Translations under genes and position numbers: made by a program
IMG/VR virus record: IMGVR_UViG_3300030104_002529
Span: 1-25,826 of that record
Length of the DNA: 25,826 nucleotides
Reading direction: 5' to 3' (one strand)
DNA from: a virus
Shown: in pieces, positions 1 through 25,826 of the stretch
Layout of the letters: every line of letters starts with the position of its first letter
Position numbering within the stretch: position 1 is the first letter of the stretch
Notes under the pieces: model-generated
Seen by the model: the letters and a program-made list of their open reading frames with translations, nothing else
Databases searched by the model: none
What the model was told of the DNA's origin: nothing

Positions 1-39
1 ATTTGGAGAATTTTTGCTTTTAAGATTTTAATAGCCCCC

Positions 40-665: not shown

Positions 666-996
666 TGTTCTCAGTTATTAAAAAATAGTATTCAGTATCG
701 TTCTCTAATATATATTCCATGTTTCTTGTATAATCTAACAACTTATCTCTTTCTATTCCTTCCCACATTGTATGACATCCTTTCCTTCCATTAGTATCTA
801 AGCAATGATATGTAATATTATTCTTATCTGTTACTAAGTCAGGTCTCCTACTTCTTGGAATTATATGACTATGACTTAGAGGAACATCACTTCTCCCACA
901 TCCTGAACAATAATGCCCTCTCTCATTAGCAATCTCTTTATAAACTTTGTTAAGCTCTCTATTAATTACTGATTGTTTTTTGCTTACTTGTTTCAT
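655..996 (-). CDS. HNH-type zinc nuclease, NinG-like position
   Basis: A 113-residue protein when started at the ATG at 996, which forms TAATG with the stop of the NinB-like gene. The frame stays open upstream to a TTG at 1041, but that start would overlap the neighbour by 46 bases and is less likely. Motifs are CSGC (30-33), HSHIIPRS (42-49) as the HNH-type metal/catalytic element, then C65 and CH (74-75). The family cuts or resolves DNA with one metal. In lambdoid phages NinB is followed by the NinG Holliday-junction nuclease; here an HNH-like protein follows a NinB-like protein, so a recombination role is likely. NinG identity itself is not shown. Confidence 0.8.
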   Translation of the reverse strand: MKQVSKKQSVINRELNKVYKEIANERGHYCSGCGRSDVPLSHSHIIPRSRRPDLVTDKNNITYHCLDTNGRKGCHTMWEGIERDKLLDYTRNMEYILENDTEYYFLITENNGR

Positions 997-1379
997 TATT
1001 CGTATGTAGGGAGATTTATATTTAATGTGTTGTTGCTCCAATATAAAACATCATCCATCAATTTTGTAAATTCTTTAACAGTTAGAGTTGTAGTGCTTTT
1101 CAGCTTAACTTCTTCAATTCCATTATTATTAATAGATGTTCTTTTTAAAAATTTATACTTAACTAATTCGTGCATTTCTTCTTTTGTAAATCCTATCTCC
1201 TCACTCATAATATTAATCCATTTCCAATATAAACTATTTTGCTCATTTGATCTGTTGTTTGTTCTTACTTTAATTCTTATCTCTATTTCTTCTCCTTCAA
1301 ATATATTCAAATTATCATTGAACCTTCTTTCATTATTAAGAATTAATTTTCCATTCTTTACTGTGCCAAATGCCTTCAT
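996..1379 (-). CDS. NinB/Orf-like recombination protein
   Basis: A 127-residue protein resembling the NinB (lambda Orf) recombination mediator family. The family hallmarks are visible in order: a basic, glutamine/asparagine-containing RSNEQN stretch (about 43-48), the LYWKW aromatic segment, the helix EEMHELVKYKFL (about 67-78), then the ST..LTVKEFTKLMDDV segment (about 94-110) and a C-terminal INLPTYE like the family's usual LP ending. Lambda Orf helps load recombinase on SSB-coated DNA. The gene is followed, with a TAATG overlap, by an HNH nuclease, recalling the ninB-ninG pairing. The start ATG at 1379 lies inside the preceding small membrane-protein gene. Confidence 0.75.
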   Translation of the reverse strand: MKAFGTVKNGKLILNNERRFNDNLNIFEGEEIEIRIKVRTNNRSNEQNSLYWKWINIMSEEIGFTKEEMHELVKYKFLKRTSINNNGIEEVKLKSTTTLTVKEFTKLMDDVLYWSNNTLNINLPTYE

Positions 1380-1470: not shown

Positions 1471-1669
1471 TTTTCTTTTCTTTTATTAGTTTTTCTAATA
1501 TTTGCGAATCATTATATACTGGGCGGCTTCCATTATAAGCTGTTGGATCATATAAGTTTTTAATCTCTTTTATCTTATCATTATCATCATAGTAAACGAT
1601 CCATCCTCTTTTAATTCCATTTGAATCAACACAGTTAAATGTTTTTTTAATTGATTTAATAGTTTCCAT
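1463..1669 (-). CDS. hypothetical protein
   Basis: A 68-residue protein started at the ATG at 1669, which gives a 14-base overlap with the upstream gene. The frame is open further to a TTG at 1732, but that start would overlap by 77 bases and is rejected. The protein has a lysine-rich N-terminus, a RGWIVYYDDND stretch that looks like a beta hairpin (about residues 21-31), and a charged C-terminus ending in KEKKND. Aromatic and tyrosine-containing segments suggest a small beta-rich fold. No function is recognised. It lies between two small membrane-protein genes in the early operon. Confidence 0.65.
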   Translation of the reverse strand: METIKSIKKTFNCVDSNGIKRGWIVYYDDNDKIKEIKNLYDPTAYNGSRPVYNDSQILEKLIKEKKND

Positions 1670-1856
1670 AGTTGGTATATTTATTTTTCCATCTATCCAG
1701 CAAATCAAAATAAAGCTCTCTAAACTTATCAAGCTCTTTCTCTAATTCTTTGCTTTCATGTTTCATTACATACATACAAGACAAACTCCCTATTATAAAA
1801 CCTATTAGCATACTAAAACATATTGCTATTAAAAATAATATTTGTTCTTCTGTCAT
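1656..1856 (-). CDS. small membrane protein with coiled-coil tail
   Basis: A 66-residue protein with one confident membrane helix at residues 6-30, containing the small-residue pattern GFIIGSLS. A charged helical tail follows (about 33-60, KELEKELDKFRELYFDLLDRW) with heptad-like leucine/phenylalanine spacing. The expected topology is N-out with the coiled coil in the cytoplasm, judging by the lysines after the helix, but this is inference. The start forms an ATGA overlap with the upstream cysteine-rich gene. It belongs to the set of tiny early-operon proteins, three of which are membrane proteins. No family is recognised. Confidence 0.7.
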   Translation of the reverse strand: MTEEQILFLIAICFSMLIGFIIGSLSCMYVMKHESKELEKELDKFRELYFDLLDRWKNKYTNYGNY

Positions 1857-2062
1857 TTCCCTAAAATTATATTAATATTATTTGTGTCTATACAGCTGCA
1901 TTGTTCTAAGTATTCTTGACACCATAAACATTTCTCACACCAGAAACAGTAATCATATCCATCAGAATCTTTTTGCTTGTCAGTACCGCAACATGAACAA
2001 AGATTAAGTTCTTCTTTGCAATTTATAGGATTATTAGGGTCGTTTGCTATATGCTTATCCAT
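1853..2062 (-). CDS. cysteine-rich small protein, probable metal binder
   Basis: A 69-residue protein with ten cysteines: C15, C22, C24, C25, C39, C42, C45, C48, C55 and C57. The run C39-x2-C-x2-C-x2-C is unusual for a simple zinc ribbon and could hold more than one zinc, or an iron-sulfur cluster. Aromatic residues (F40, W41, W47, Y51) surround the cysteines. There is no signal peptide, so it should act in the cytoplasm. The gene ends in an ATGA overlap with the membrane-protein gene downstream. No family is recognised. Small zinc proteins of early phage operons often bind nucleic acid or host enzymes, but that is only an analogy. Confidence 0.75.
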   Translation of the reverse strand: MDKHIANDPNNPINCKEELNLCSCCGTDKQKDSDGYDYCFWCEKCLWCQEYLEQCSCIDTNNINIILGK

Positions 2063-2081
2063 AGTTTTAAACTTTTAATTG

Positions 2082-2477
2082 TTAATTAATTAATCTCTTT
2101 TTATTATACTCAACTAATAATGTTGATTGTTGTCTCATTATATCTCTAATATGGGGTTGTATTACATGATGATTACCACATTCAAAATTATACCATCCTT
2201 CCCAAATCTCAGATTTCATCTTATTTAACCACTTGCACCAATTAGCAGCACTCAAAACAAAAAGCTCTGAATCTCTTATGCCATTATCAAAAGCTATTTT
2301 CACAGCTTCCATTGGAAAAAAAGCATATCTGTTTTTTAAGTCCTTTGCTAATGATTGAGCTAACATTACTTTATGCTCAGGATCATTGTCTTTTTGTCCT
2401 AAGTCAGCTAAGGCTTGAGTAATTATATCAACGCATAATAATTCCAGATCGTTCTTGTTAATGTTTCTAATTTCCAT
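2082..2477 (-). CDS. conserved replication-region protein, possible helicase-loader-like
   Basis: A 131-residue protein of a type I associate with the replication block of Bacteroidetes phages. An N-terminal helical region is followed by a segment near residues 46-90 (AFFPMEAVKIAFDNGIRD, then WCKWLNKMK). This corresponds to the conserved 'A..NG.RG......T..KWL' pattern seen in those phage proteins. It overlaps the upstream replisome-organiser-like gene by 11 bases, so the two are probably co-translated. No Walker motif is present, so it is not an AAA+ loader. A role in recruiting or regulating the host helicase is a guess from position. Conserved-hypothetical is the safe label. Confidence 0.6.
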   Translation of the reverse strand: MEIRNINKNDLELLCVDIITQALADLGQKDNDPEHKVMLAQSLAKDLKNRYAFFPMEAVKIAFDNGIRDSELFVLSAANWCKWLNKMKSEIWEGWYNFECGNHHVIQPHIRDIMRQQSTLLVEYNKKRLIN

Positions 2478-3120
2478 TTTGTATATTCTTTAATATTTGT
2501 TTAGCTGCATTATGACTTGAAAGCCTTTGCATTACTTTTGATTCTATTTGTCCTTTTTCTTTTCTCATGTTTTCCCAATTACGAACAGCTGCCTTCCAGT
2601 TTTTCATTTTGTTTTTTCCTACCATCCAGCCTTTGCTTTCGTAATAATTAAAAAATCTTTCAGCATTAATTTTATTTTTTCTTTCTAAGCAATAACTCTC
2701 AATATCTTCAATTTTTGGCTTTTTAAACCTATTATTATTATTATCTGTATTATTATATATTGTATTATTATCTTCATCATTTTTTATATACCCCCCTTTA
2801 TTTTTTTTAATAGGTAAAACATCATCATTATATACCCTGTTTAATTTTTTAACTACCTTAATGATTCTTGATACAATTACTTTTCCTTCTCTTTCAAATT
2901 TAATATTAATCAATCCTTTTTCATTTAGTTTAGTAATTACTTGACTGCATCTGCCTTTAGTTATTCCAAAGAACTCTGAAAAGTATTTATTAGAAGCATA
3001 GCAACCATGCTCATTGTCTAATGAATCAATCTCAACTAAAAAAAGTTTTTCAATTAATTTAAGGCTTTTATTAAGCCAAACCTCTTTCGGAATCCATATA
3101 CCTTTGAAATCTCTCTCCAT
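2467..3120 (-). CDS. phage replisome organiser / replication initiator-like protein
   Basis: A 217-residue, two-part protein. Residues 1-95 form a winged-helix domain of the kind found in phage replication proteins (GIWIPKEVW start, then an HTH around YFSEFFGITKGRCSQVITKL and a wing). A low-complexity asparagine/aspartate linker runs from about 112 to 130 (DEDNNTIYNNTDNNNN). Residues 135-185 carry the DnaD/DnaT-like C-terminal motif, with AERFFNYYESKGWMVGKNKM and WKAAVRNWE. Such proteins bind the phage origin and recruit host helicase. The gene starts in a TAATG overlap with the winged-helix gene upstream. The DNA encoding the linker is extremely AT-rich and may double as the unwinding part of an origin. 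Confidence 0.75.
   Translation of the reverse strand: MERDFKGIWIPKEVWLNKSLKLIEKLFLVEIDSLDNEHGCYASNKYFSEFFGITKGRCSQVITKLNEKGLINIKFEREGKVIVSRIIKVVKKLNRVYNDDVLPIKKNKGGYIKNDEDNNTIYNNTDNNNNRFKKPKIEDIESYCLERKNKINAERFFNYYESKGWMVGKNKMKNWKAAVRNWENMRKEKGQIESKVMQRLSSHNAAKQILKNIQNGN
2731..2790. other. very AT-rich tract, candidate DNA-unwinding element
   Basis: Only 6 of 60 bases are G or C, with ATT-type triplet repeats, inside the replisome-organiser-like gene. It encodes that protein's asparagine-rich linker. Many phages keep their origin within the initiator gene, often in the linker-coding part, so this could be the melting site. I see no clear set of iterons next to it. The composition may simply reflect the amino acids. 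Confidence 0.3.
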
Positions 3121-3491
3121 TATTCAAATAGTGTTGTTTGACCAGTACCTCCAAAAAGAATTGTTTGCTGCTCTAATGCGTTTAAAACATCAACCTGAGC
3201 TTTTATTCTTTGTTTTAAGCTAATGATATAATCTTGCATCTCATATATATTAGTAGCCACAAAATATCCATTTGAAGATGAACATAAGGCTGGAAGCTGG
3301 TTTGTTATTCTAATATGATTAATTATTTTTCTAAGTCTTGGAGCAGATATATTAAGTGCTTTGCAAATTTTTGTGCTTGAAACAGCACTATCTTTTCCTT
3401 GTTTTGTTTGTAGTCCTCTTATAACAACTGGGACTAATTCTAATTCTTGCTGATTTAATTCAGCTGTAATTTTCTCAAATCCTTTTATCAT
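3120..3491 (-). CDS. winged-helix protein with two C-terminal clamp-binding-type motifs
   Basis: A 123-residue protein of a family frequent in Bacteroidetes phages: an FEKITAELNQQELELVPVVI start, a winged-helix region at about residues 30-80 (KICKALNISAPRLRKIINHIR, then a wing GYFVATN), and a coiled helix at 84-107. The C-terminus holds QTILF (109-113) and QTTLF (118-122), both matching the QxxLF bacterial sliding-clamp-binding pattern. It lies between the DnaA-domain gene (17-base overlap) and the replisome-organiser gene (TAATG). It probably binds DNA and may tie the phage replication complex to the host clamp. The winged helix is well supported; clamp binding is a hypothesis from the motif and its terminal position. 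Confidence 0.7.
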   Translation of the reverse strand: MIKGFEKITAELNQQELELVPVVIRGLQTKQGKDSAVSSTKICKALNISAPRLRKIINHIRITNQLPALCSSSNGYFVATNIYEMQDYIISLKQRIKAQVDVLNALEQQTILFGGTGQTTLFE

Positions 3492-3891
3492 TGTTTTTAT
3501 AATAAGTATTTATTTGTGCTTGTAATTCAATCATCTGCTCTTTCATGGCTAATATGACAGCATTGCCAGAATCAAATTCCTTCATTCTTAACTTGAACTC
3601 TTTATATTCCTCAGAGTATATACGATATGCTTTTTTCTCTGCCATGCTTAAGAGAAACTCCATCTTATTGCAATGATGAATACAAGTTGCATGGTTTACT
3701 CCTTTAATATATTTTTTCATATGAGCATATTTAATTCCAAGATGTCTATTTAAGTAGAACATAAACATCCTTCTTGCTCCCATTATTACTCTTGTTCTTT
3801 TTCCAACAGTCGTTAATTCTGTAATAGGGATTTCATACATCTCAGATAATATCTTAGCAGCAGTATCAATTAATTTTACTTTATAACTCAT
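3475..3891 (-). CDS. DnaA domain IV-like DNA-binding protein
   Basis: A 138-residue protein started at the ATG at 3891, which makes an ATGA overlap with the nuclease gene. The frame is open to a TTG at 3936, which would only add 15 basic residues. The region corresponding to TVGKRTRVIMGARRMFMFYL, followed by HMKKYIKGVNHATCIHHCNKM, matches the DnaA C-terminal domain: a basic loop, then a helix-turn-helix ending in the DHTTVxHAxxKI-type signature (here NHATCIHHCNKM). No AAA+ ATPase domain is present, so it can bind but not build an ATP-driven filament. A helical C-terminal third (about 85-138) has no match I know. It likely marks the phage origin or competes with host DnaA. Confidence 0.8.
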   Translation of the reverse strand: MSYKVKLIDTAAKILSEMYEIPITELTTVGKRTRVIMGARRMFMFYLNRHLGIKYAHMKKYIKGVNHATCIHHCNKMEFLLSMAEKKAYRIYSEEYKEFKLRMKEFDSGNAVILAMKEQMIELQAQINTYYKNNDKRI

Positions 3892-4619
3892 ATTTCTATA
3901 TTTATAACATTTGGTTTTTCTGTCCTTTTTGTGCAATTTAATTCACATTTTCTGCAAATTGAGTAGTTTTTTATCGGTTTTGGTTCAAAATCTTGCAAAT
4001 CTTTTGAAAAGGTATTTAATAACATTCTGTAATCTTCCATAGCATTTGAAGTAATATCTACACTAATAAACTTTACCCATCCACTCTTTCCAAAAACTAA
4101 ATAGAAAAATGGTAAATAGACATCATAAAGCTGATAATACATTTCTACATAATGTAGAGCTTGTCTGAAATCTTTATACTTTAGATCACTCCACGCATAA
4201 GGATTCCATTTGCAAGATTCATCTTCCCTGATAGCTGTATATTTCAAGTCCATTATTGCCAGATTTCCTTTATAAGTAATTAAAGCATCTGGATGTCCTA
4301 TTAAAGTATCAGTTTCCCATTCTGGCTGAACTTCTAATATTTTAATTTCTAAATCTTTCATTGTTTTTTTAGCAAACTCACTTAAATAAACTAAGTCAGC
4401 TTCTCTTTTAGATACGTTTCCATTTTTTAATCTTGGAATCATACCAATAAAACTTTCATTGTCTCTTGTGCTTCCAATAGTTAGCTCCTCAAAAACTAAG
4501 CCATCAATCATTGCATTAGTTGGCCTACTTCTATATCCTTCAATAAAAAACTTTTCCCATTTTAACTCGCAAAAGTTCTCATCATAAAATGATTTCAATG
4601 CTGATTGACTTATCTTCAT
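3888..4619 (-). CDS. PD-(D/E)XK nuclease, Cas4/RecB-like with four-cysteine pattern
   Basis: A 243-residue nuclease of the RecB/Cas4 superfamily. Visible motifs are GHPD (D111), MDLK (D124, K126) as the DxK core, and QALHY (Q153, Y157) as the QxxxY motif. One N-terminal cysteine (C17) plus C222, C225 and C229 near the C-terminus give the four-cysteine arrangement that holds an iron-sulfur cluster in Cas4 and AddB. Here the last three are spaced CxxCxxxC. It probably degrades DNA ends for recombination. It is preceded, with a 4-base overlap, by a candidate annealing-type protein, so the pair resembles phage exonuclease/annealing modules. The fold is secure; the cluster and polarity are inferred. 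Confidence 0.85.
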   Translation of the reverse strand: MKISQSALKSFYDENFCELKWEKFFIEGYRSRPTNAMIDGLVFEELTIGSTRDNESFIGMIPRLKNGNVSKREADLVYLSEFAKKTMKDLEIKILEVQPEWETDTLIGHPDALITYKGNLAIMDLKYTAIREDESCKWNPYAWSDLKYKDFRQALHYVEMYYQLYDVYLPFFYLVFGKSGWVKFISVDITSNAMEDYRMLLNTFSKDLQDFEPKPIKNYSICRKCELNCTKRTEKPNVINIEI

Positions 4620-5020
4620 TTTATTTTATTAAGTGTTTCATTAGGCTGATTTTCTATTTCATCTTCTCCCATCATGTTTGTCCATTTCATAGTTTTGATA
4701 ATACAACGTGCCATAGCTCTCTTTTCTGCGATTTCAACTAAAAAATGTTGTTTGCAATTATTTATAGAAGCACTCCCAAAAGTTTCAATAATAGGAATAA
4801 ACTCCTGAGCATTGCTATCATATCTCATGCTAACTGCTTTTAATACTACATTTTCTAAATGACAAACGATAACCTCATAAGCAACTTTAATATTATTCTG
4901 ATTCTGAATTTGCTCAATTCCTGATTTTGTTATAACAAAAAAACCTCTTTTGTCTTTGTACACATCTTTTTCAGTTAGATTATGTAGTTTGTAAAATTTT
5001 AATAATTCTTGTCTGTCCAT
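4616..5020 (-). CDS. conserved early protein, candidate single-strand annealing/ssDNA-binding partner
   Basis: A 134-residue protein. Residues 8-60 look like an alpha/beta domain (KFYKLHNLTEKDVY, then FFVITKSGIEQI). A segment near 92-112, with ETFGSASINNC, then HFLVEIAEKRAMARCIIKTM, resembles the 'T.GEAS..N.....AEKRA..R..LK' signature that I associate with phage proteins encoded beside RecB-like nucleases. Erf/Rad52-type annealing proteins contain a similar 'AETRA.GRAL' helix. The stop overlaps the nuclease start by 4 bases. Annealing or ssDNA binding is inferred from this resemblance and from position; the fold is not proven. Confidence 0.6.
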   Translation of the reverse strand: MDRQELLKFYKLHNLTEKDVYKDKRGFFVITKSGIEQIQNQNNIKVAYEVIVCHLENVVLKAVSMRYDSNAQEFIPIIETFGSASINNCKQHFLVEIAEKRAMARCIIKTMKWTNMMGEDEIENQPNETLNKIK

Positions 5021-5169
5021 TTTTTTATTAGGTTTTTAATTTTAGGATAAGCTCCTTGTAGTCTATAAGTATAACCTTTTCCTTTGTTCATGTCTTTAAA
5101 TCTTTGCATCTCACAAATTGTCAAGTTCTTTTGAACAATGTCTCCGTATATATTTCTTATTTCCCACAT
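4999..5169 (-). CDS. small basic hypothetical protein
   Basis: A 56-residue frame with ATG at 5169 that starts within the last codons of the small membrane-protein gene. It runs 22 bases into the annealing-like gene. It is rich in lysine, arginine and aromatic residues: MWEIRNIYGDIVQ, then MQRFKDMNKGKGYTYRL, then KIKNLIKKW. It has no cysteine pair or membrane helix. The overlapping, ordered packing with both neighbours argues for a real gene. No family is recognised; nucleic-acid binding would fit the charge but is only a guess. Confidence 0.6.
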   Translation of the reverse strand: MWEIRNIYGDIVQKNLTICEMQRFKDMNKGKGYTYRLQGAYPKIKNLIKKWTDKNY

Positions 5170-5273
5170 AGCATCAACATGTCAACAAGTTGGCAAAGTC
5201 CTAAAAAGAAATACAAAAAGCCAAAGATTAAAGCCATTCCAGTTAAGTCCGATATAATATTATTTAATTTCAT
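5157..5273 (-). CDS. small one-helix membrane protein
   Basis: A 38-residue frame with ATG at 5273, overlapping the upstream gene by 14 bases and the downstream gene by 13. Residues 10-34 are strongly hydrophobic and aromatic (TGMALIFGFLYFFLGLCQLV), so nearly the whole protein is one membrane helix. It is the second gene of the early operon, which favours early expression at the host membrane. No homologue is recognised. Confidence 0.5.
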   Translation of the reverse strand: MKLNNIISDLTGMALIFGFLYFFLGLCQLVDMLMLCGK

Positions 5274-5409
5274 TTGTCTGAGTTTTTATTTGTCTTATTA
5301 CTTTTTTTAATTTAATTAGTTCCATCTTCAAATCAAGATTATAAGCTCTTAATCTATCAATATCTCTCAAAGCCTTGTTTAATTCTAAGCCTTTATTATA
5401 TGTTTCCAT
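5260..5409 (-). CDS. first gene of the early operon, small coiled-coil protein
   Basis: A 49-residue frame with ATG at 5409, preceded by an A-rich run as is usual for Flavobacteriia starts. It lies about 27 bases downstream of a TATGTTTG promoter-like element. The sequence is almost entirely helical with regular leucine/isoleucine spacing: LELNKALRDIDRLRAYNLDL, then KMELIKLKKVIRQIKTQ. This suggests a short parallel coiled coil. It opens the leftward replication operon. No family is recognised. A small dimeric regulator is one possibility. Confidence 0.6.
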   Translation of the reverse strand: METYNKGLELNKALRDIDRLRAYNLDLKMELIKLKKVIRQIKTQTNEIK

Positions 5410-5435
5410 TTTTTTATTTATTGATTATTACAGCA

Positions 5436-5443
5436 CAAACATA
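5436..5443 (-). promoter_or_regulatory. promoter -7-like element TATGTTTG of the early operon
   Basis: Read on the minus strand, TATGTTTG fits the Bacteroidetes sigma consensus TAnnTTTG. It is about 27 bases upstream of the first early ATG and directly downstream of the late-operon terminator, where a promoter is expected. No convincing -33 TTG element is visible. Three ATGTT repeats just upstream (5438-5459) could be an operator or simply AT-rich sequence. Confidence 0.45.
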
Positions 5444-5509
5444 AAAACATTTTAACATTTGTTTAGAATTATAAGGCTTTACTTATAAACAACTTAATGT
5501 TAATAATAG

Positions 5510-5532
5510 AAAAACCCCTACGAACATAGGGG
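5510..5532 (-). terminator. intrinsic terminator of the late operon
   Basis: On the minus strand CCCCTA and TAGGGG form a 6-bp GC-rich stem with a 6-base loop, followed directly by TTTTT. It lies 55 bases past the stop of the metallophosphoesterase gene and 67 bases before the early promoter-like element. It thus insulates the two operons. The G/C island is striking in such AT-rich surroundings. Confidence 0.8.
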
Positions 5533-5587
5533 CTGATCTTTAGAAAATAACTTTAAACAAGTATTGTATTACGACAAGGCAAATATA

Positions 5588-6769
5588 TTAAAAATAATGA
5601 ACCAGCCTTGCAACTTGCCCACTTTCTTTTTCATGTATAAAACCCTCTACTGCTTTGTGAACTCCAGTATATCCTTTCCTACTATGCCAACTATCTGTTC
5701 CACTTGGAGATCGCATATATTCCACAGTAACTCCAATGAAATCTTTTGCATCTCTCCATTTGTGCTTAATTTTATGATGTAAATGATGTAAATACCAATA
5801 TCTGTATTTTGTTTCACTCCACATTGTGGGTTTTTCTTGAGCCATTAAAAGGGGTAAATTATCCATCTTAGCTCCATCTCCATGCTCTAAGCCTATTAAG
5901 TTTAAGCCATACTGATAATATTTTCTGTGAGCCACGCTAATATCAAAAGACACTTCTTCATCTTTTCTAAACCAGCTTTTTAAAGCATGAGCTAAATGGA
6001 ATCCACTTTGATAATCATGATTGCTCATTGAATGTAAAACATCAATAGGAGCAATGATTCTAAGTCTTTCAATACATTTAACATATAACTCCAACGCTAA
6101 CTCAAAATGTTCCCACCACTTGCCATCCGATTCTACATACGTACCCTTAGTGGTAGTTGAATACACATTATCGATATGCAGAATATCATTCCCTACACAA
6201 AAAAGAATCCTATCTATGCTGAATCCTTTAGCTTTGTTTATAAGTCCCTCAATTCCTTCTAATACTCTCTCATAAGCAATGTCATTATTATAAGCCTCTC
6301 CAGTTTCTATCTCATTAGCATATTTACCGATATGAATGTCAGCTGGATTGATAACTAATAAATGATTAGCCTCTTTCTCTCTTTTAATAGGAGCATAATA
6401 ATGATTATGTTTTTCTATTAAGTCGGTAATCTTTTCAAGAAGTTCATTCTCTCTAAGTCTTTGCGTTTCTTTGGTAACAATAGAGAAACGTAAATCTCCT
6501 CCCATGCTTTGCCAATGTTTGACACTTATTACATCTTCTTTATTTATTCCTCTCTCAAGTAAATGTTCATCAAGAGCTGAATTATTATTAATATTAGAAA
6601 AGTTAGGGATTGAGTCTTTGATGATAGCTGTTACAGTTCTTCTGAGATAACGACTTTTGACTTTTAAATCATATTTTTCAATTAAGATTTCTGCTATGGC
6701 TGTATATCCAGTCCCTGAGTTCCAGAGAGCCAACATCTCATCTGTATAAATCGAATATTTACTTTGCAT
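5588..6769 (-). CDS. HTH plus calcineurin-like metallophosphoesterase
   Basis: A 393-residue protein. Residues 10-48 look like an HTH of the terminase/transposase type (ALWNSGTGYTAIAEILIEKY). Residues 130-350 are a metallophosphoesterase with all metal-binding blocks: D144xH146, GND (193-195), NHD (250-252), H296 in LEHGDG, and a histidine block 328-332 in place of the usual GHxH. The fold covers Mre11/SbcD-like nucleases and phosphodiesterases, so DNA or nucleotide phosphoester cleavage is likely. It stands alone between two strong terminators. The upstream one has a T-tract running straight into the ATG, so the gene's expression may be separately controlled. The substrate is unknown. Confidence 0.85.
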   Translation of the reverse strand: MQSKYSIYTDEMLALWNSGTGYTAIAEILIEKYDLKVKSRYLRRTVTAIIKDSIPNFSNINNNSALDEHLLERGINKEDVISVKHWQSMGGDLRFSIVTKETQRLRENELLEKITDLIEKHNHYYAPIKREKEANHLLVINPADIHIGKYANEIETGEAYNNDIAYERVLEGIEGLINKAKGFSIDRILFCVGNDILHIDNVYSTTTKGTYVESDGKWWEHFELALELYVKCIERLRIIAPIDVLHSMSNHDYQSGFHLAHALKSWFRKDEEVSFDISVAHRKYYQYGLNLIGLEHGDGAKMDNLPLLMAQEKPTMWSETKYRYWYLHHLHHKIKHKWRDAKDFIGVTVEYMRSPSGTDSWHSRKGYTGVHKAVEGFIHEKESGQVARLVHYF

Positions 6770-6800
6770 AAAAAAAACAAAGGGGGATTTTATTCCCCCT
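6770..6800 (-). terminator. intrinsic terminator abutting the next start codon
   Basis: On the minus strand AGGGGGA pairs with TCCCCCT (7 bp, loop ATAAAA), followed by TTTGTTTTTTTT. The next three bases are the ATG of the metallophosphoesterase gene. It ends the transcript of the lysis block. The immediate contact with a start codon is unusual. Confidence 0.85.
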
Positions 6801-6816
6801 CTGCATTATATAGAAA

Positions 6817-7041
6817 CTACTTTTTTTCCAACAGTTGATATAATATCACTAAAGCTATCAACCCAACTACACCATTTCCTCCAAGCATGTTGATGACCTC
6901 AATAATGTTATCCATTACACTCATCCCTAAAACTGGGCTTCCATATAATATCTCCGCAACAATACCAAGTGAAAGCATTGCCACAATTAAATTAGTTAAT
7001 TTTCCTATAAAACCTACTGTTATGTTAAATATATTATCCAT
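6817..7041 (-). CDS. two-helix membrane protein, holin candidate
   Basis: A 74-residue protein with two hydrophobic segments, about 8-34 (FIGKLTNLIVAMLSLGIVAEIL) and about 50-71 (MLGGNGVVGLIALVILYQLL), ending in EKK. A glycine-rich turn precedes the second helix. Similar small two-helix proteins are common in Flavobacteriia phages near the lysis genes. A class II holin topology fits the size and charged C-terminus. It is not certain, because a GTA-type holin lies 1 kb upstream. It is the last gene before the terminator at 6770-6800. Confidence 0.65.
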   Translation of the reverse strand: MDNIFNITVGFIGKLTNLIVAMLSLGIVAEILYGSPVLGMSVMDNIIEVINMLGGNGVVGLIALVILYQLLEKK

Positions 7042-8504: not shown

Positions 8505-8912
8505 TTAAAATTTATTTATCATTAAACCATCTATCACTTTTTGCACTTTTTTTGGAGTTCTTCTGGGACATAATTGAAAACTTATATTCCCCTCAAACCT
8601 TTCAACTTCTTCTCCATTATTGAAAACAATTAATGTCGGCAACACTTTGATTTCGTAATTCTCAGCTGTTTCACTTTCTAAATCTATTCGGTAGGTTTTA
8701 GCATTTGAAATTTCTTCCAGCCAAAAGCATTCATTTTCCTTATTCCAATCTGACCAAAACTCAACAACTGTTATTCCTGATTGGCTTTTATTAAAAGTTT
8801 TATCAGTTATTAAAGCCTGACCATTACAAGTAATAGAAACTAAAATAAGCAGAATTATAAACCCTACATACATTAAAAAAACTTTCTTTTTTATTTTATT
8901 TTTATCTACCAT
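8505..8912 (-). CDS. membrane-anchored thioredoxin-like protein lacking the CxxC site
   Basis: A 135-residue protein with a lysine-rich start, a hydrophobic segment at 11-28 (signal anchor or signal peptide with C29), then a thioredoxin fold. VVEFWSDW (49-56) equals the strand before the active site, and VLPTLIVFNNG (90-100) contains the cis-proline P92. The canonical WCxxC is replaced by W56-N-K-E-N, so both redox cysteines are lost. C62 lies two residues further and C115 is in the last third. It therefore should not act as an ordinary disulfide reductase. A periplasmic chaperone or binding role is possible. It overlaps the upstream gene by 11 bases and abuts the holin gene. Confidence 0.75.
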   Translation of the reverse strand: MVDKNKIKKKVFLMYVGFIILLILVSITCNGQALITDKTFNKSQSGITVVEFWSDWNKENECFWLEEISNAKTYRIDLESETAENYEIKVLPTLIVFNNGEEVERFEGNISFQLCPRRTPKKVQKVIDGLMINKF

Positions 8913-13396: not shown

Positions 13397-15645
13397 TAAT
13401 ATCCTCTGTTTCTGTTAATTCCAGTTTTGCTGTTTGTTAGCCATATATCGTTTCCGCTTATTCTTCCAAATACTTCCACTTGTTGAACACCTCCTCCCAT
13501 CAGGCTTTTTAACTTATCAAGAGGAGCAACAATTTCCGGATTTGTATTTGCTCCAGCATACTCTCCCATCAATCCAACAGTTGGCCCACTAATAATCCCC
13601 CCATCTGCAAAGGAAGGAATTAAACTATTAAGAGCAGTTCTTGCAAGTCCAGCAGCAGCTCCAGCAAGAGCTGGAATTAAAAATACTGAGCCTGGAAATG
13701 GAGGGATTGAGCTAAGAGCTTTTGTGACAGCTGTTGCCACCCCCTCAGCAATTAAAGCTCCGATTATATCTCTGATTGTGTTTTTAACTACCTTTCCATA
13801 GTCCTCAAAAGAAGAAGCTCCTTGCATTAATGTTTGTTTAGCTTGTTGAGCATATTCCATTAATACTTTTTTTGTAATCCCAAATTTCTCTGCTAACATC
13901 TCCATCACAGAAGCTGTTCCTTCCATTGACTCTTGAGCAGCTAATTGGTCAGTAATAAAGTCCTTACCAAACATTCCAAAGCCTCCAGTTTGTTTTTCAG
14001 GCTTATCTGTTTTTGTAGTTGGTTTTCCTCCTCCTCCTGAACCTCCTCCTAATTCAAAAGGATTGCCTAAAAGCCCTAAAGCCTCAGCCAATTCTGTTGC
14101 TTGGTTTTTCATTGCATCTGCAAAACTTCCGAACTCATTTTCATATTCAACAGTTTCATCCTTTAAACTATCAAGACCTTCTCTCATCATTTCAAATGGA
14201 TCAGGAATAGGATTCCCTCCTAAATAGGTAATCAATCCATTTACCGATTCAATAAGCATAGCAATCGGATTGAACTTTATTACCCATCCAACAGCTGTTA
14301 ATAAAGCATTTCGCCACCATGACCAATCACTTAATCTCTCTTTAAATGCTTCCCAGTTTTCTCTAACATAAGCAAAACCAACAGCAAAGGCAGATATTGC
14401 TGCAACAGCTAATCCAACTGGAGTTAGTAAAGCAGAAAAGGCAACTGTTAAACTTCCAATAACTGAAACAATAGGGCCAATAGAAGCAGCAACTAAAGCC
14501 ATAGTAGTGATAAGATTTTTCATGTCTTGGTCTAAAGAACTCCACCAATTCATAGCTCCTTGTAATTTTTCAAGTCCTTTTAATACTAAAGGCATAACTT
14601 GATTACCAATATCTATTAATACAAGTTTAACTTGATTCAGAGCTTTTTGGAATTTAAAACCAGCATCAGTTCCTAAAATATCAAAACCTTCTGCAACATT
14701 CCCCATTGAGTTGTTCATTCCATCAAGAACATCAGTATAAGTTTCTGATTGTAGTCCCATTGTAGAAAGAGCAGCTGTTACAGCTTTTGATGAGCCGAAC
14801 ATTTTTAAAAGCATATCATCTGTGCCTTCAAGTTCTGTGAATAAGAATTGAAGTGTCCCCATTAAAGATTCATCTAACATTGCAGCTAAATCTCCATAAG
14901 ACATTCCAAGTGTGTCTAATATTTCAACTTGTTCAGCTGATGGATTCAGGAGTTTCATCATTAATTGATTCAAGCCAGTCAATGTAGAAGCAGCATCTCC
15001 AGATAACTTAGACATAGTAGCAGCAGCAGCTCCTAATTCCTCGAACTCAATACCAGCAGCAGCAGCTGTTGGAATAACTCTACCAAGTCTGGACATAAAC
15101 TCTCCAGCCTCAAATTTTCCTTGTTTTAATGTTTCATGTAATAAATCTCCAGCTCTTGCAGCATCCATTCCATCTGACTCATAAGCCTTCATGACAGATG
15201 TCAAAGCCGAACCAATATCAGTCATGTCTCCCATTCCCATTGCGGCAGCCTTTGCTGAAACAGCTAAGGCATCAATCGCTTCTTGTCCTGATAATCCAGC
15301 AGATGTAATAAAGAATAATCCTTCTGCTAATTGGTCGGCAGCAATACCAGTAGTTGATGATAATGACAGAACATCTTTCTCATAAGATTTTAATTCCTCA
15401 GCACTTGCTCCAACAAGAGTTCTTATTTTTGTCATTGATGAACCAAAGTCAGCTGCCATTTTAATTCCAGCTGCTCCAATTCCAAGAATAGGCATTGTGA
15501 TATTAGTAGTCAATGAGCTACCAATGTTTTTCATAGTTTTTCCGAATCTTCTAACTTTGGTCTGAGCTTTTTTCATAGCTCTATCAAAGCCTTGCATATT
15601 AGCTCCGAAATTAAATGTTAAATAACCAATCGCCTTATTTGCCAT
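13396..15645 (-). CDS. tail tape measure protein
   Basis: A 749-residue protein of the phage tail tape measure family. The N-terminus has the RAMKKAQTKVRRFGKTM motif and a glycine-rich segment. It then shows the characteristic 'TKIRTLVGAS...LSSTTGIAADQLAEGLFFITSAGLSG' block (about 75-125). A hydrophobic mid-region with several membrane-like helices follows (about 380-430), and a glycine-rich linker at about 535-545 (GGGSGGGG). A C-terminal part contains SFADGGIISGPTVGLMGEY, typical of tape measures. It sets tail length and enters the host envelope. It overlaps the frameshifted chaperone gene by 11 bases. Confidence 0.93.
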   Translation of the reverse strand: MANKAIGYLTFNFGANMQGFDRAMKKAQTKVRRFGKTMKNIGSSLTTNITMPILGIGAAGIKMAADFGSSMTKIRTLVGASAEELKSYEKDVLSLSSTTGIAADQLAEGLFFITSAGLSGQEAIDALAVSAKAAAMGMGDMTDIGSALTSVMKAYESDGMDAARAGDLLHETLKQGKFEAGEFMSRLGRVIPTAAAAGIEFEELGAAAATMSKLSGDAASTLTGLNQLMMKLLNPSAEQVEILDTLGMSYGDLAAMLDESLMGTLQFLFTELEGTDDMLLKMFGSSKAVTAALSTMGLQSETYTDVLDGMNNSMGNVAEGFDILGTDAGFKFQKALNQVKLVLIDIGNQVMPLVLKGLEKLQGAMNWWSSLDQDMKNLITTMALVAASIGPIVSVIGSLTVAFSALLTPVGLAVAAISAFAVGFAYVRENWEAFKERLSDWSWWRNALLTAVGWVIKFNPIAMLIESVNGLITYLGGNPIPDPFEMMREGLDSLKDETVEYENEFGSFADAMKNQATELAEALGLLGNPFELGGGSGGGGKPTTKTDKPEKQTGGFGMFGKDFITDQLAAQESMEGTASVMEMLAEKFGITKKVLMEYAQQAKQTLMQGASSFEDYGKVVKNTIRDIIGALIAEGVATAVTKALSSIPPFPGSVFLIPALAGAAAGLARTALNSLIPSFADGGIISGPTVGLMGEYAGANTNPEIVAPLDKLKSLMGGGVQQVEVFGRISGNDIWLTNSKTGINRNRGY

Positions 15646-24365: not shown

Positions 24366-25085
24366 TCAAAATAATCTTTTTTGTTGTTTGTGTTGTTCAA
24401 TTCTTTTCATAGAATTATCATAATTTATTTTATTTAATTCACTACCTATATAATTTATATTATTTTTTAAGCAAACAACAGCAGTCGTACCGCTACCCAT
24501 AAAGCTATCATATACTATATAATCTGGTTTGGAAGCAATTTTTAATATTCTTTCTACTAAGGCTTTTGGCATTTGAGTAGGATGTATTCTTTCGCTGCTC
24601 TTTATATTGTGAGGAACATACCATACTGAACTTAATGGATCATGTATGCCACAATTTTCATTTAAATAAATATCATCTCCTTTACTCAAATGATAAATTA
24701 TTTCATAATCTAAATGAAATCTTTTTTTTGTACTATCAAAACTTCCAGCATATTTCCATATAATAAAACTTTTAAATTTTAATTTTTTAAAACTATCAAC
24801 AAACTCAATCCAATGCGGAGTGTTTAAAGTTTTATTAAATGTTTTACTTTTTATATTAAAAAAAATCTGTCCAGTTGGTTTTAAAATTCTTTCAAACTCG
24901 TTAAATAATTTTTCTAAATAATCAGAATAAAATTTTAAAAATAAAATGTCTTTGCTTTTTGCTCCATATCCAGCACCATTAACATCCTCATAGGGAGGAC
25001 TCGTAATTATTAAATCAATATAGTTGTTTGGCATTTTTGCCATTGTTATCAAATTATCCTCATTGTATATTTTATTTAATTCCAT
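24366..25085 (-). CDS. DNA methyltransferase, beta-type (m4C or m6A)
   Basis: A 239-residue amino-methyltransferase. The catalytic motif IV is TSPPY (28-32), nearest the N-terminus. Motif I is FMGSGTT (195-201) near the C-terminus, so the circularly permuted beta order is present. HPTQMP (168-173) precedes motif I as usual. SPPY is most often seen in N4-cytosine enzymes, but N6-adenine is not excluded. There is no adjacent restriction gene, so it is an orphan, likely protecting phage DNA from host restriction. The gene is unusually AT-rich, with poly-A/T runs, compared with its terminase neighbours, which suggests later acquisition. It starts with TAATG after the small terminase. Confidence 0.9.
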   Translation of the reverse strand: MELNKIYNEDNLITMAKMPNNYIDLIITSPPYEDVNGAGYGAKSKDILFLKFYSDYLEKLFNEFERILKPTGQIFFNIKSKTFNKTLNTPHWIEFVDSFKKLKFKSFIIWKYAGSFDSTKKRFHLDYEIIYHLSKGDDIYLNENCGIHDPLSSVWYVPHNIKSSERIHPTQMPKALVERILKIASKPDYIVYDSFMGSGTTAVVCLKNNINYIGSELNKINYDNSMKRIEQHKQQKRLF

Positions 25086-25561: not shown

Positions 25562-25753
25562 CTATTTTTTTCTTAGTGTTGGTTCAGTCCTTATTAAACA
25601 AGGGAAGCCATCAAATTGTTTTTTTACCTCTTGCATGTAATTTCCGCATTTACACTTCGCTTCTCTTGTTCGAATTTTTCCATCAACAATTTCTAAAGTT
25701 GCTTTGTTTAAAATTTTTTGTTCATGACATTTATTACATTGATATATCATCAT
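25562..25753 (-). CDS. zinc-ribbon protein upstream of small terminase
   Basis: A 63-residue protein with four cysteines arranged as a zinc ribbon: C6-x2-C9 and C34-x-C36, in YQCNKCHE and AKCKCGNY. The ATG doublet at 25753/25750 gives two nearly equal starts. The rest is basic, with FDGFPCLIRTEPTL near the end. Small zinc-ribbon proteins encoded next to terminase genes are common in Bacteroidetes phages and may help DNA binding. Its stop directly precedes the small terminase ATG. Confidence 0.75.
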   Translation of the reverse strand: MMIYQCNKCHEQKILNKATLEIVDGKIRTREAKCKCGNYMQEVKKQFDGFPCLIRTEPTLRKK

Positions 25754-25781
25754 ATTATTGGTTTTAGTTTGAACTTAAACT

Positions 25782-25826
25782 GTATCGATACCTATATCTC
25801 CAATTTTGCATATAAAATATCGATAT
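25782..25826. promoter_or_regulatory. two 10-bp palindromes upstream of the terminase genes
   Basis: GTATCGATAC (25782-25791) and ATATCGATAT (25817-25826) are perfect palindromes sharing the TATCGATA core, spaced exactly 35 bases apart (core to core). They precede the first late gene. They may be operator sites for late transcription or part of the packaging site. The right one touches the window edge. Confidence 0.4.

What the first reader, a model, noticed from the sequence alone, without database searches (positions are those of the whole stretch)
2082..5020. Replication/recombination module consisting only of recruiter proteins
In order: annealing-like protein, Cas4/RecB-like nuclease, DnaA domain IV protein, winged helix with clamp motifs, DnaD-like organiser with AT-rich linker DNA, and a possible helicase-loading partner. 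All are coupled by 4-17 base overlaps. None is an enzyme of DNA synthesis. The set reads as an integrated system for moving host initiator, clamp and helicase to phage DNA, with recombination at the same site.
Basis: inference. Interest (0 to 1): 0.65.

Follow-up and report, generated by a model that had tools for sequence, protein, structure and literature searches.

The report
Phage replication origin and recombination operon
A 25.8-kb virus of Bacteroidota-type bacteria carries a compact operon that most likely starts DNA copying from an origin hidden inside its own initiator gene, as phage lambda does, and borrows all copying enzymes from the host; the plan is known, but several of the parts are new.

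Summary
The six genes are real, collinear and translationally coupled (overlaps 4, 4, 17, 1 and 11 bases). The record looks like a complete linear genome: three relatives of 25.2-26.6 kb end within a few bases of the same two points. No polymerase, DnaB-type helicase or primase was found. The order annealase > Cas4-like nuclease > DnaA-domain-IV > winged helix > initiator > 131-aa protein holds in most close relatives, with insertions and one loss of the first two genes. A second phage group replaces the nuclease and winged helix. "Only recruiter proteins" is wrong: the operon holds a nuclease and a probable annealase. The main new result is that the "AT-rich linker DNA" of the initiator gene is a lambda-type origin. 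In relatives it holds four iterons 21-22-22 or 22-23-24 bp apart, in shifting reading frames and with forced rare codons (lambda: 20-24-23). Where the initiator's DNA-binding domain is swapped, the iterons are swapped too. The 131-aa gene sits where other phages place DnaC-like or lambda-P-like loaders or a helicase, so it is probably a loader, without detectable homology. Clamp binding rests on a conserved C-terminal motif; "moving host DnaA" has no support. Verdict: a variant of the lambda O-P plus Red plan.

The parts
2467..3120 (-). Initiator (RepO): N-terminal helix-turn-helix domain, linker, C-terminal domain with GW..GKNKMKNWKAAVRNW
   Evidence: phrog_270 replication initiation 7.1e-14, O-like phrog_678 4e-11, HTH_36 3.9e-5; N- and C-terminal halves match different phages separately
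2849..2862 (-). Iteron 1 (degenerate) of the proposed origin
   Evidence: core at gene position 261 on the family lattice
2828..2844 (-). Iteron 2, TTAAACAGGGTATATAA, near-palindromic; best site of this kind in the genome
2806..2822 (-). Lattice position 3; degenerate in this genome (TTACCTATTAAA), intact in relatives
   Evidence: relatives have a core here at spacing 22; in the window read by eye
2784..2801 (-). Iteron 4, ATAAAGGGGGGTATATAA
   Evidence: direct repeat of iteron 2 at spacing 44, in another reading frame
2722..2783 (-). AT-rich tract next to iteron 4, proposed unwinding element
   Evidence: A+T about 0.80 at 2701-2900, the highest of 1500-7000
2082..2477 (-). 131-aa all-helical protein, proposed helicase loader
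   Evidence: follows RepO within 1.2 kb in 29 of 38 near relatives, directly in 23; the same slot holds loaders or helicases in other phages
3120..3491 (-). Winged-helix-type protein of phrog_2113
   Evidence: 2.8e-26; alignment of 8
3126..3140 (-). C-terminal motif QTTLF (clamp-binding-like; QLSIF in a distant relative)
3475..3891 (-). DnaA-domain-IV protein, 138 aa from the likely ATG (upstream TTG at 3936)
   Evidence: Bac_DnaA_C 5.5e-8; 1j1v 4.9e-12; start codons
3888..4619 (-). Cas4/RecB-like PD-(D/E)XK nuclease with four invariant Cys (17, 222, 225, 229)
4616..5020 (-). Probable single-strand annealing protein of the Rad52/ERF/RecT kind
4999..5169 (-). 56-aa ORF overlapping the annealase start
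   Evidence: present in some close relatives
5513..5534 (-). Intrinsic terminator that separates the exonuclease gene from the operon
5588..6769 (-). SbcD-like DNA repair exonuclease, functional neighbour
   Evidence: phrog_704 1.1e-68; upstream of the annealase in nearly all related loci
996..1379 (-). NinB/Orf recombination mediator
   Evidence: phrog_72 3.2e-22

Best explanation
A lambda-type 'initiator plus loader' replication module joined to a lambda-Red-type recombination set. Inferred mechanism: RepO binds as dimers, through its N-terminal domain, to iterons spaced about two helical turns apart in the middle of its own gene and opens the adjacent AT-rich tract. The 131-aa protein, translationally coupled to RepO, delivers the host DnaB helicase to the bubble through the RepO C-terminal domain. 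The host supplies primase, polymerase III and clamp. The winged-helix protein probably tethers host sliding clamp (DnaN) to the forming complex through its C-terminal Q..LF motif. The DnaA-domain-IV protein is a sequence-specific DNA-binding protein with altered specificity, probably regulatory. The annealase and the Cas4-like nuclease, with SbcD-like exonuclease and NinB, make concatemers for packaging from the cos-like ends. Shown by sequence: gene content and order, completeness (strongly suggested), absence of the tested replication enzymes, iterons in relatives. Inferred: all biochemical functions.
For: Fixed ends shared by G000-G003, about 25-27 kb; no polymerase, DnaB, ResIII helicase, VapE-type or Toprim hits, with positive controls, none in scans of all main window ORFs. 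Four iteron cores at 21-22-22 in G001, G005-G008 and 22-23-24 in the second group, in different reading frames. Codon-preserving shuffles reach such chains in 0-50 of 5000 in 11 relatives, and no other chain of three or more exists in any tested genome. Rare codons: Gly GGG 17/23 (3.5 expected) and Arg AGG 12/20 (3.5), second group 20/20 (2.0) and 29/35 (6.9). Strongest repeats lie in the linker in 46 of 54 initiator genes. Annotated lambda iterons show the same geometry, 20-24-23, in the middle of O, and the repeat measure peaks there. Domain swap with iteron swap in G003, G014 and L230. In Cruim01 a RepO homologue with 22-bp repeats in its linker is followed, with 4-base overlap, by a lambda-P-like gene. 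DnaC-like loaders follow in Porphyromonas phage005b and Skulduggery, helicases in Vibrio 1.061.O and Chenonceau. Annealase fold.
Against: The window's own iterons are weak: codon-shuffle P about 0.07, chain of only 2, reached by 416 of 5000 shuffles; G002 and G009 are also weaker. The core pattern was chosen after viewing these sequences. The 131-aa protein shows no homology to lambda P (PF06992 none; profile comparison 3.5% probability) and no PDB fold match. Annealase fold matches in PDB are below confidence (best E 0.015). The clamp motif is absent from the Fpv5 relative.
Confidence: 0.72

Rival explanations
1. The DnaA-domain-IV protein is the true origin-binding protein, recruiting host DnaA machinery, and the RepO repeats are only operators for autoregulation.
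For: DnaA-IV is conserved in 26 of 33 near loci and occurs in mumin/hattifnatt phages without RepO; it keeps the equivalents of R399, R407 and H434.
Against: Only one perfect TTATNCACA site in the window, far from the operon, and no cluster. K415, P423, D433 and T435 are changed. Iterons follow the RepO DNA-binding domain when it is swapped. Some related loci appear to lack DnaA-IV.
Confidence: 0.12
2. The set is mainly a recombination-dependent replication system: annealase and nucleases start copying at ends, and RepO/p131 act as a restart primosome without a fixed origin.
For: Annealase, Cas4-like nuclease, SbcD-like exonuclease and NinB are all present; in phage 80alpha, Sak and Ssb strongly affect replication and concatemer formation (PMC5499656).
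Against: G006 lacks annealase and Cas4 but keeps DnaA-IV, winged helix, RepO and p131; phased iterons imply a site-specific start.
Confidence: 0.1
3. The linker repeats are not functional DNA but a by-product of low-complexity, AT-rich coding for an unstructured linker.
For: Linkers are AT-rich and asparagine-rich; single-genome repeat tests with preserved protein mostly give P 0.05-0.6.
Against: The same core in different reading frames at fixed spacing, unique in each genome, and forced rare GGG/AGG codons.
Confidence: 0.07

Closest known systems
Phage lambda O-P module with ori in gene O, plus Red recombination
   Same: Initiator gene with central iterons (20-24-23 bp in lambda) and AT-rich tract, overlapping downstream loader gene, no phage polymerase or helicase, annealase plus exonuclease nearby
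   Different: Initiator and loader unrelated by sequence; adds a DnaA-domain-IV protein and a clamp-motif protein; the genome is half the size
Staphylococcus phage 80alpha ORF16-21 (Sak, Ssb, initiator ORF20 with embedded origin, DnaC-like ORF21)
   Same: Annealase beside initiator and loader, no phage helicase, origin thought to lie in the initiator gene (PMC5499656)
   Different: 80alpha has an AAA+ DnaC-type loader and an Ssb; the window has a 131-aa protein without AAA+ match and no recognised SSB
Pseudomonas phage Cruim01 genes 70-71
   Same: RepO N-terminal homologue (38% over 136 aa) with three 22-bp repeats in the linker and an overlapping downstream gene
   Different: The downstream gene is lambda-P-like, 243 aa
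Baltic Sea Flavobacterium phages mumin/hattifnatt (PMC7077304)
   Same: Annealase homologue and DnaA-HTH gene in the replication region
   Different: Own helicase and primase; no RepO/p131 pair found
RK2 plasmid initiator TrfA
   Same: An initiation protein carrying a clamp-binding motif (PMC4980987)
   Different: Here the motif is on a separate small protein, not on the initiator

Membership tests
Initiator-helicase loader replication module (lambda O-P type) | Initiator with N-terminal helix-turn-helix domain | tested here: met
   phrog_270 7.1e-14, phrog_678 4e-11, HTH_36 3.9e-5
Initiator-helicase loader replication module (lambda O-P type) | Phased iterons inside the initiator gene | tested here: met
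   Met in most relatives; in the window only three of four sites recognisable and not significant alone
Initiator-helicase loader replication module (lambda O-P type) | AT-rich tract next to the iterons | tested here: met
   About 0.80 A+T at 2701-2900
Initiator-helicase loader replication module (lambda O-P type) | No phage-encoded replicative helicase or polymerase | tested here: met
Lambda P helicase loader family (PF06992) | Sequence homology of the 131-aa protein to lambda P | tested here: not met
   No hit in 16 genomes; profile comparison 3.5% probability. It may work like, but is not filed as, a lambda P.
Helicase loader (function) | Binds DnaB and loads it at the origin | not testable with these tools
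   Inferred from gene slot
DnaA domain IV (Bac_DnaA_C) | Profile match above curated cut-off | tested here: met
   33.2 bits against 31.5
Full DnaA initiator | AAA+ domain III present | tested here: not met
   138 aa, domain IV only
Full DnaA initiator | DnaA boxes clustered in the genome | tested here: not met
   One perfect TTATNCACA, at 14836
Rad52/ERF/RecT single-strand annealing proteins | Rad52-type fold | tested here: inconclusive
   Model pLDDT 80.5; RAD52 top PDB hit E 0.015; named BFVD hits Rad52, ERF, RecT at E 0.002-0.01, TM 0.4-0.6
Cas4/RecB PD-(D/E)XK nucleases | PD...(D/E)XK core and four Cys for an Fe-S cluster | tested here: met
   PD at 110-111 and D124-L-K126 invariant, C17, C222, C225, C229 invariant; Pfam match below cut-off
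Beta-clamp binding proteins | Conserved Q-x-x-(L/I)-F motif | tested here: met
   QTTLF/QTSLF in 8 of 8, QLSIF in L230; binding itself not testable; absent in Fpv5

The most novel reading that the evidence does not exclude
A minimal replisome-capture operon for Bacteroidota phages: origin embedded in the initiator gene, a new non-AAA+ helicase-loader family (the 131-aa protein) and a separate phage protein that brings the host sliding clamp to the origin, with a re-specified DnaA domain IV as regulator.
Probability: 0.25. Interest if true: 0.68.

Novelty: new variant of a known kind. Interest (0 to 1): 0.47.

Why it matters
It gives a concrete, testable origin of replication and a candidate helicase-loader family for a widespread group of aquatic phages whose replication genes are mostly annotated as hypothetical. 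The co-swapping of initiator domain and iterons is a natural experiment that lets origins be read directly from initiator genes. If the clamp motif works, it would extend to phages the plasmid-type (TrfA) principle of clamp capture at initiation.

Tried and rejected
Direct DNA similarity to annotated phages: nothing useful. Family scans of the annealase and the 131-aa protein: only unknown families or marginal hits. PDB sequence searches for annealase, 131-aa protein, RepO and Cas4-like protein: no convincing hit. PDB fold search of the 131-aa model: nothing. Self-repeat test with codon shuffles on single genomes: mostly not significant, so the argument was moved to fixed spacing, reading-frame shift and rare codons across relatives. 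Lambda P and DnaC-like homology of the 131-aa protein: not found. RepO against lambda O: no homology. DnaA-box cluster: none. SPP1 record not held under the accession tried, so G38P/G39P were not compared. Literature search for a phage DnaA-domain-IV protein gave nothing direct.
Full report
1. What is there. All six ORFs exist on the minus strand in the stated order, with overlaps of 4, 4, 17, 1 and 11 bases if the DnaA-domain-IV gene starts at the ATG at 3891. They form a longer transcription unit than described: a 56-aa ORF (5169-4999) overlaps the annealase gene, smaller ORFs reach back to about 5410, and an intrinsic terminator at 5534-5513 separates the unit from an SbcD-like exonuclease gene (6769-5588) that has another terminator on its other side.

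2. The genome is probably complete. The window is a virus record of 25,826 bases. Three relatives of 25,187, 25,294 and 26,634 bases have the same HNH gene at the left end and the same small-terminase gene at the right end, and their first and last bases align to within one or two bases of the window's. Further relatives (G005, G006, G007, G014) have the small terminase 250-310 bases from an end. Fixed ends with HNH next to terminase are what cos-type linear genomes look like; this is an inference. Pfam and PHROG scans of all main window ORFs find packaging, head, tail, lysis and methylase genes but no polymerase, helicase or primase. The PHROG list for the non-replication genes shows only its first 25 families. 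Family searches for DnaB_C, DNA_pol_A, ResIII, VapE-like and Toprim_4 find nothing in the window or its close relatives, with controls ringing.

3. Conservation of the set. Profiles made from the window genes were run over all fetched loci. The order SbcD > annealase > Cas4 > DnaA-IV > winged helix > RepO > p131 is found in G000, G001, G002, G003, G005, G007 and G014; G009 has the same order from annealase on; G008 has it with an inversion that may be an assembly fault; G006 lacks annealase and Cas4 together. L230, a contig of a Flavobacteriales metagenome-assembled genome, has the same order up to its end in RepO. Methyltransferase, Mom or SSB genes are inserted between members in several. 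A second group, with other structural genes, keeps SbcD > annealase > DnaA-IV > RepO > p131 and has small ORFs, an SSB-like protein ending in DDLPF and, in several, a 169-aa protein in place of Cas4 and winged helix. Counted on non-redundant near relatives of RepO, annealase is upstream in 30 of 33, DnaA-IV in 26 of 33, and p131 downstream in 29 of 38 (23 of them adjacent or overlapping); among distant relatives the figures are about 1 in 12-15. These near relatives were partly chosen by RepO similarity and come largely from two searches, so they are not independent samples.

4. The linker DNA is an origin. In RepO genes of relatives the linker between the DNA-binding domain and the C-terminal domain carries four copies of a near-palindromic element, about TTAAATA-GGG-TATTTAA, with core spacings of 21-22-22 in G001, G005, G006, G007 and G008, and 22-23-24 in the second group. 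As 22 and 23 are not multiples of three, the same DNA word is read in different frames, which a protein repeat cannot cause. It also forces rare codons: GGG for glycine 17 of 23 against 3.5 expected and AGG for arginine 12 of 20 against 3.5; in the second group 20 of 20 against 2.0 and 29 of 35 against 6.9. Shuffles that keep the protein and codon usage reach four phased cores in 0-50 of 5000 in the relatives that have four or more, and no other chain of three or more cores exists in any of ten genomes. Over 54 initiator genes the strongest repeats lie in the linker in 46 (Wilcoxon P 2.8e-7). Lambda serves as a positive control: its annotated iterons in gene O lie at spacings 20, 24 and 23, and the same measure peaks there. 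The lambdoid origin, iterons plus AT-rich tract in the middle of O, is described in PMC7466680.

5. A natural experiment. G003, G014 and L230 have a different N-terminal domain on RepO, and their linkers carry other repeats: four 15-bp units in G003, related ones in G014 and a GAAAAACCGATTACG array in L230. Cruim01, whose N-terminal domain is a relative (38% over 136 aa), has three 22-bp repeats at spacing 22 and 23 in its linker. Iterons thus travel with the DNA-binding domain. In the window itself only three of four sites are recognisable and they are not significant on their own; the claim for the window rests on its relatives.

6. The 131-aa protein. It has no family, no match in the annotated phages and a confident all-helical model (pLDDT 86.6) without PDB match. 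Its slot is telling: the gene directly after a RepO relative is a DnaC-like loader in Porphyromonas phage005b and Skulduggery, a DNA helicase in Vibrio 1.061.O, a primase/helicase in Chenonceau, an AAA ATPase in GJ44 and a lambda-P-like gene in Cruim01. Homology to lambda P was tested and not found. So: probably a loader (about 0.6), not a lambda P.

7. Winged helix with clamp motif. The C-terminus GQT[T/S]LFE is invariant in eight relatives, and in L230 it reads GQLSIFE: Q, L/I and F are kept while the positions between change, as expected for a clamp-binding motif. The F. psychrophilum phage homologue lacks it. Clamp capture by an initiator is known for TrfA of RK2 (PMC4980987). Confidence in clamp binding is about 0.45.

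8. DnaA-domain-IV protein. The fold assignment is firm. Aligned to E. coli DnaA, it keeps R399, R401, R407, H434 and T436 but changes K415, P423, D433 and T435 (which of these touch the DnaA box is from memory of the 1J1V structure). No DnaA-box cluster is present. It therefore probably binds another site. It also occurs in phages with their own helicase and primase, so it is not tied to capture of the host helicase. Its role is the least certain part; a regulator of the phage replication region or of host oriC is the favoured guess.

9. Recombination part. The annealase model has a helix, three long strands and a helix, with RAD52 as best PDB match (E 0.015) and viral Rad52, ERF and RecT proteins among the named matches. 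The Cas4-like protein has the nuclease core and four invariant cysteines. Their joint loss in G006 fits a functional pair. In phage 80alpha a Sak annealase and an Ssb in the same region are needed for normal replication and concatemers, and the origin is thought to lie in the initiator gene (PMC5499656).

10. Verdict. What it works like is a lambda-type module; by sequence it is not a member of the lambda O or P families. Novel elements are the embedded origin in this phage group, the p131 family and the clamp-motif and DnaA-IV accessories. Host: annealase relatives lie in Flavobacterium and Tenacibaculum phages and mostly in Bacteroidota genomes, so a Bacteroidota host is likely but not shown.

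Noticed in passing
window 1-30 and 25700-25826: Ends coincide with those of three other records; the right end holds a conserved block GTTTTAGTTTGAACTTAAACTG and CCAATTTTGC...ATCGAT shared by relatives of about 80% protein identity, a likely cos/packaging site.
   Followed up: partly
window 24366-25085: A DNA methylase gene sits between the terminase genes; it is absent in G001, G002 and G005, and methylase genes are inserted at several other points in relatives.
   Followed up: no
L188 2810-3754: A Mom-family protein (PF25680, 1.6e-30) lies between RepO and p131 in relative G008, suggesting DNA modification by cargo genes.
   Followed up: no
L187 6394-6708; L188 113-427; L190 5701-6000; L230 5612-5887: Relatives carry a DUF3127 or similar SSB-like gene in the same module; the window has no recognisable SSB.
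   Followed up: partly
G008 (L188/L189): Part of the module is inverted and a terminase fragment lies at the contig end, possibly an assembly fault.
   Followed up: no
window 8505-8912: A thioredoxin-like protein (Pfam Thioredoxin 1e-6 in the scan of the window's other ORFs) with an N-terminal hydrophobic segment lies between lysis-type genes.
   Followed up: no
L222 869-1711: In Porphyromonas phage005b an annotated Apyc1-like anti-Pycsar nuclease lies between a RecT-like gene and the RepO homologue.
   Followed up: no
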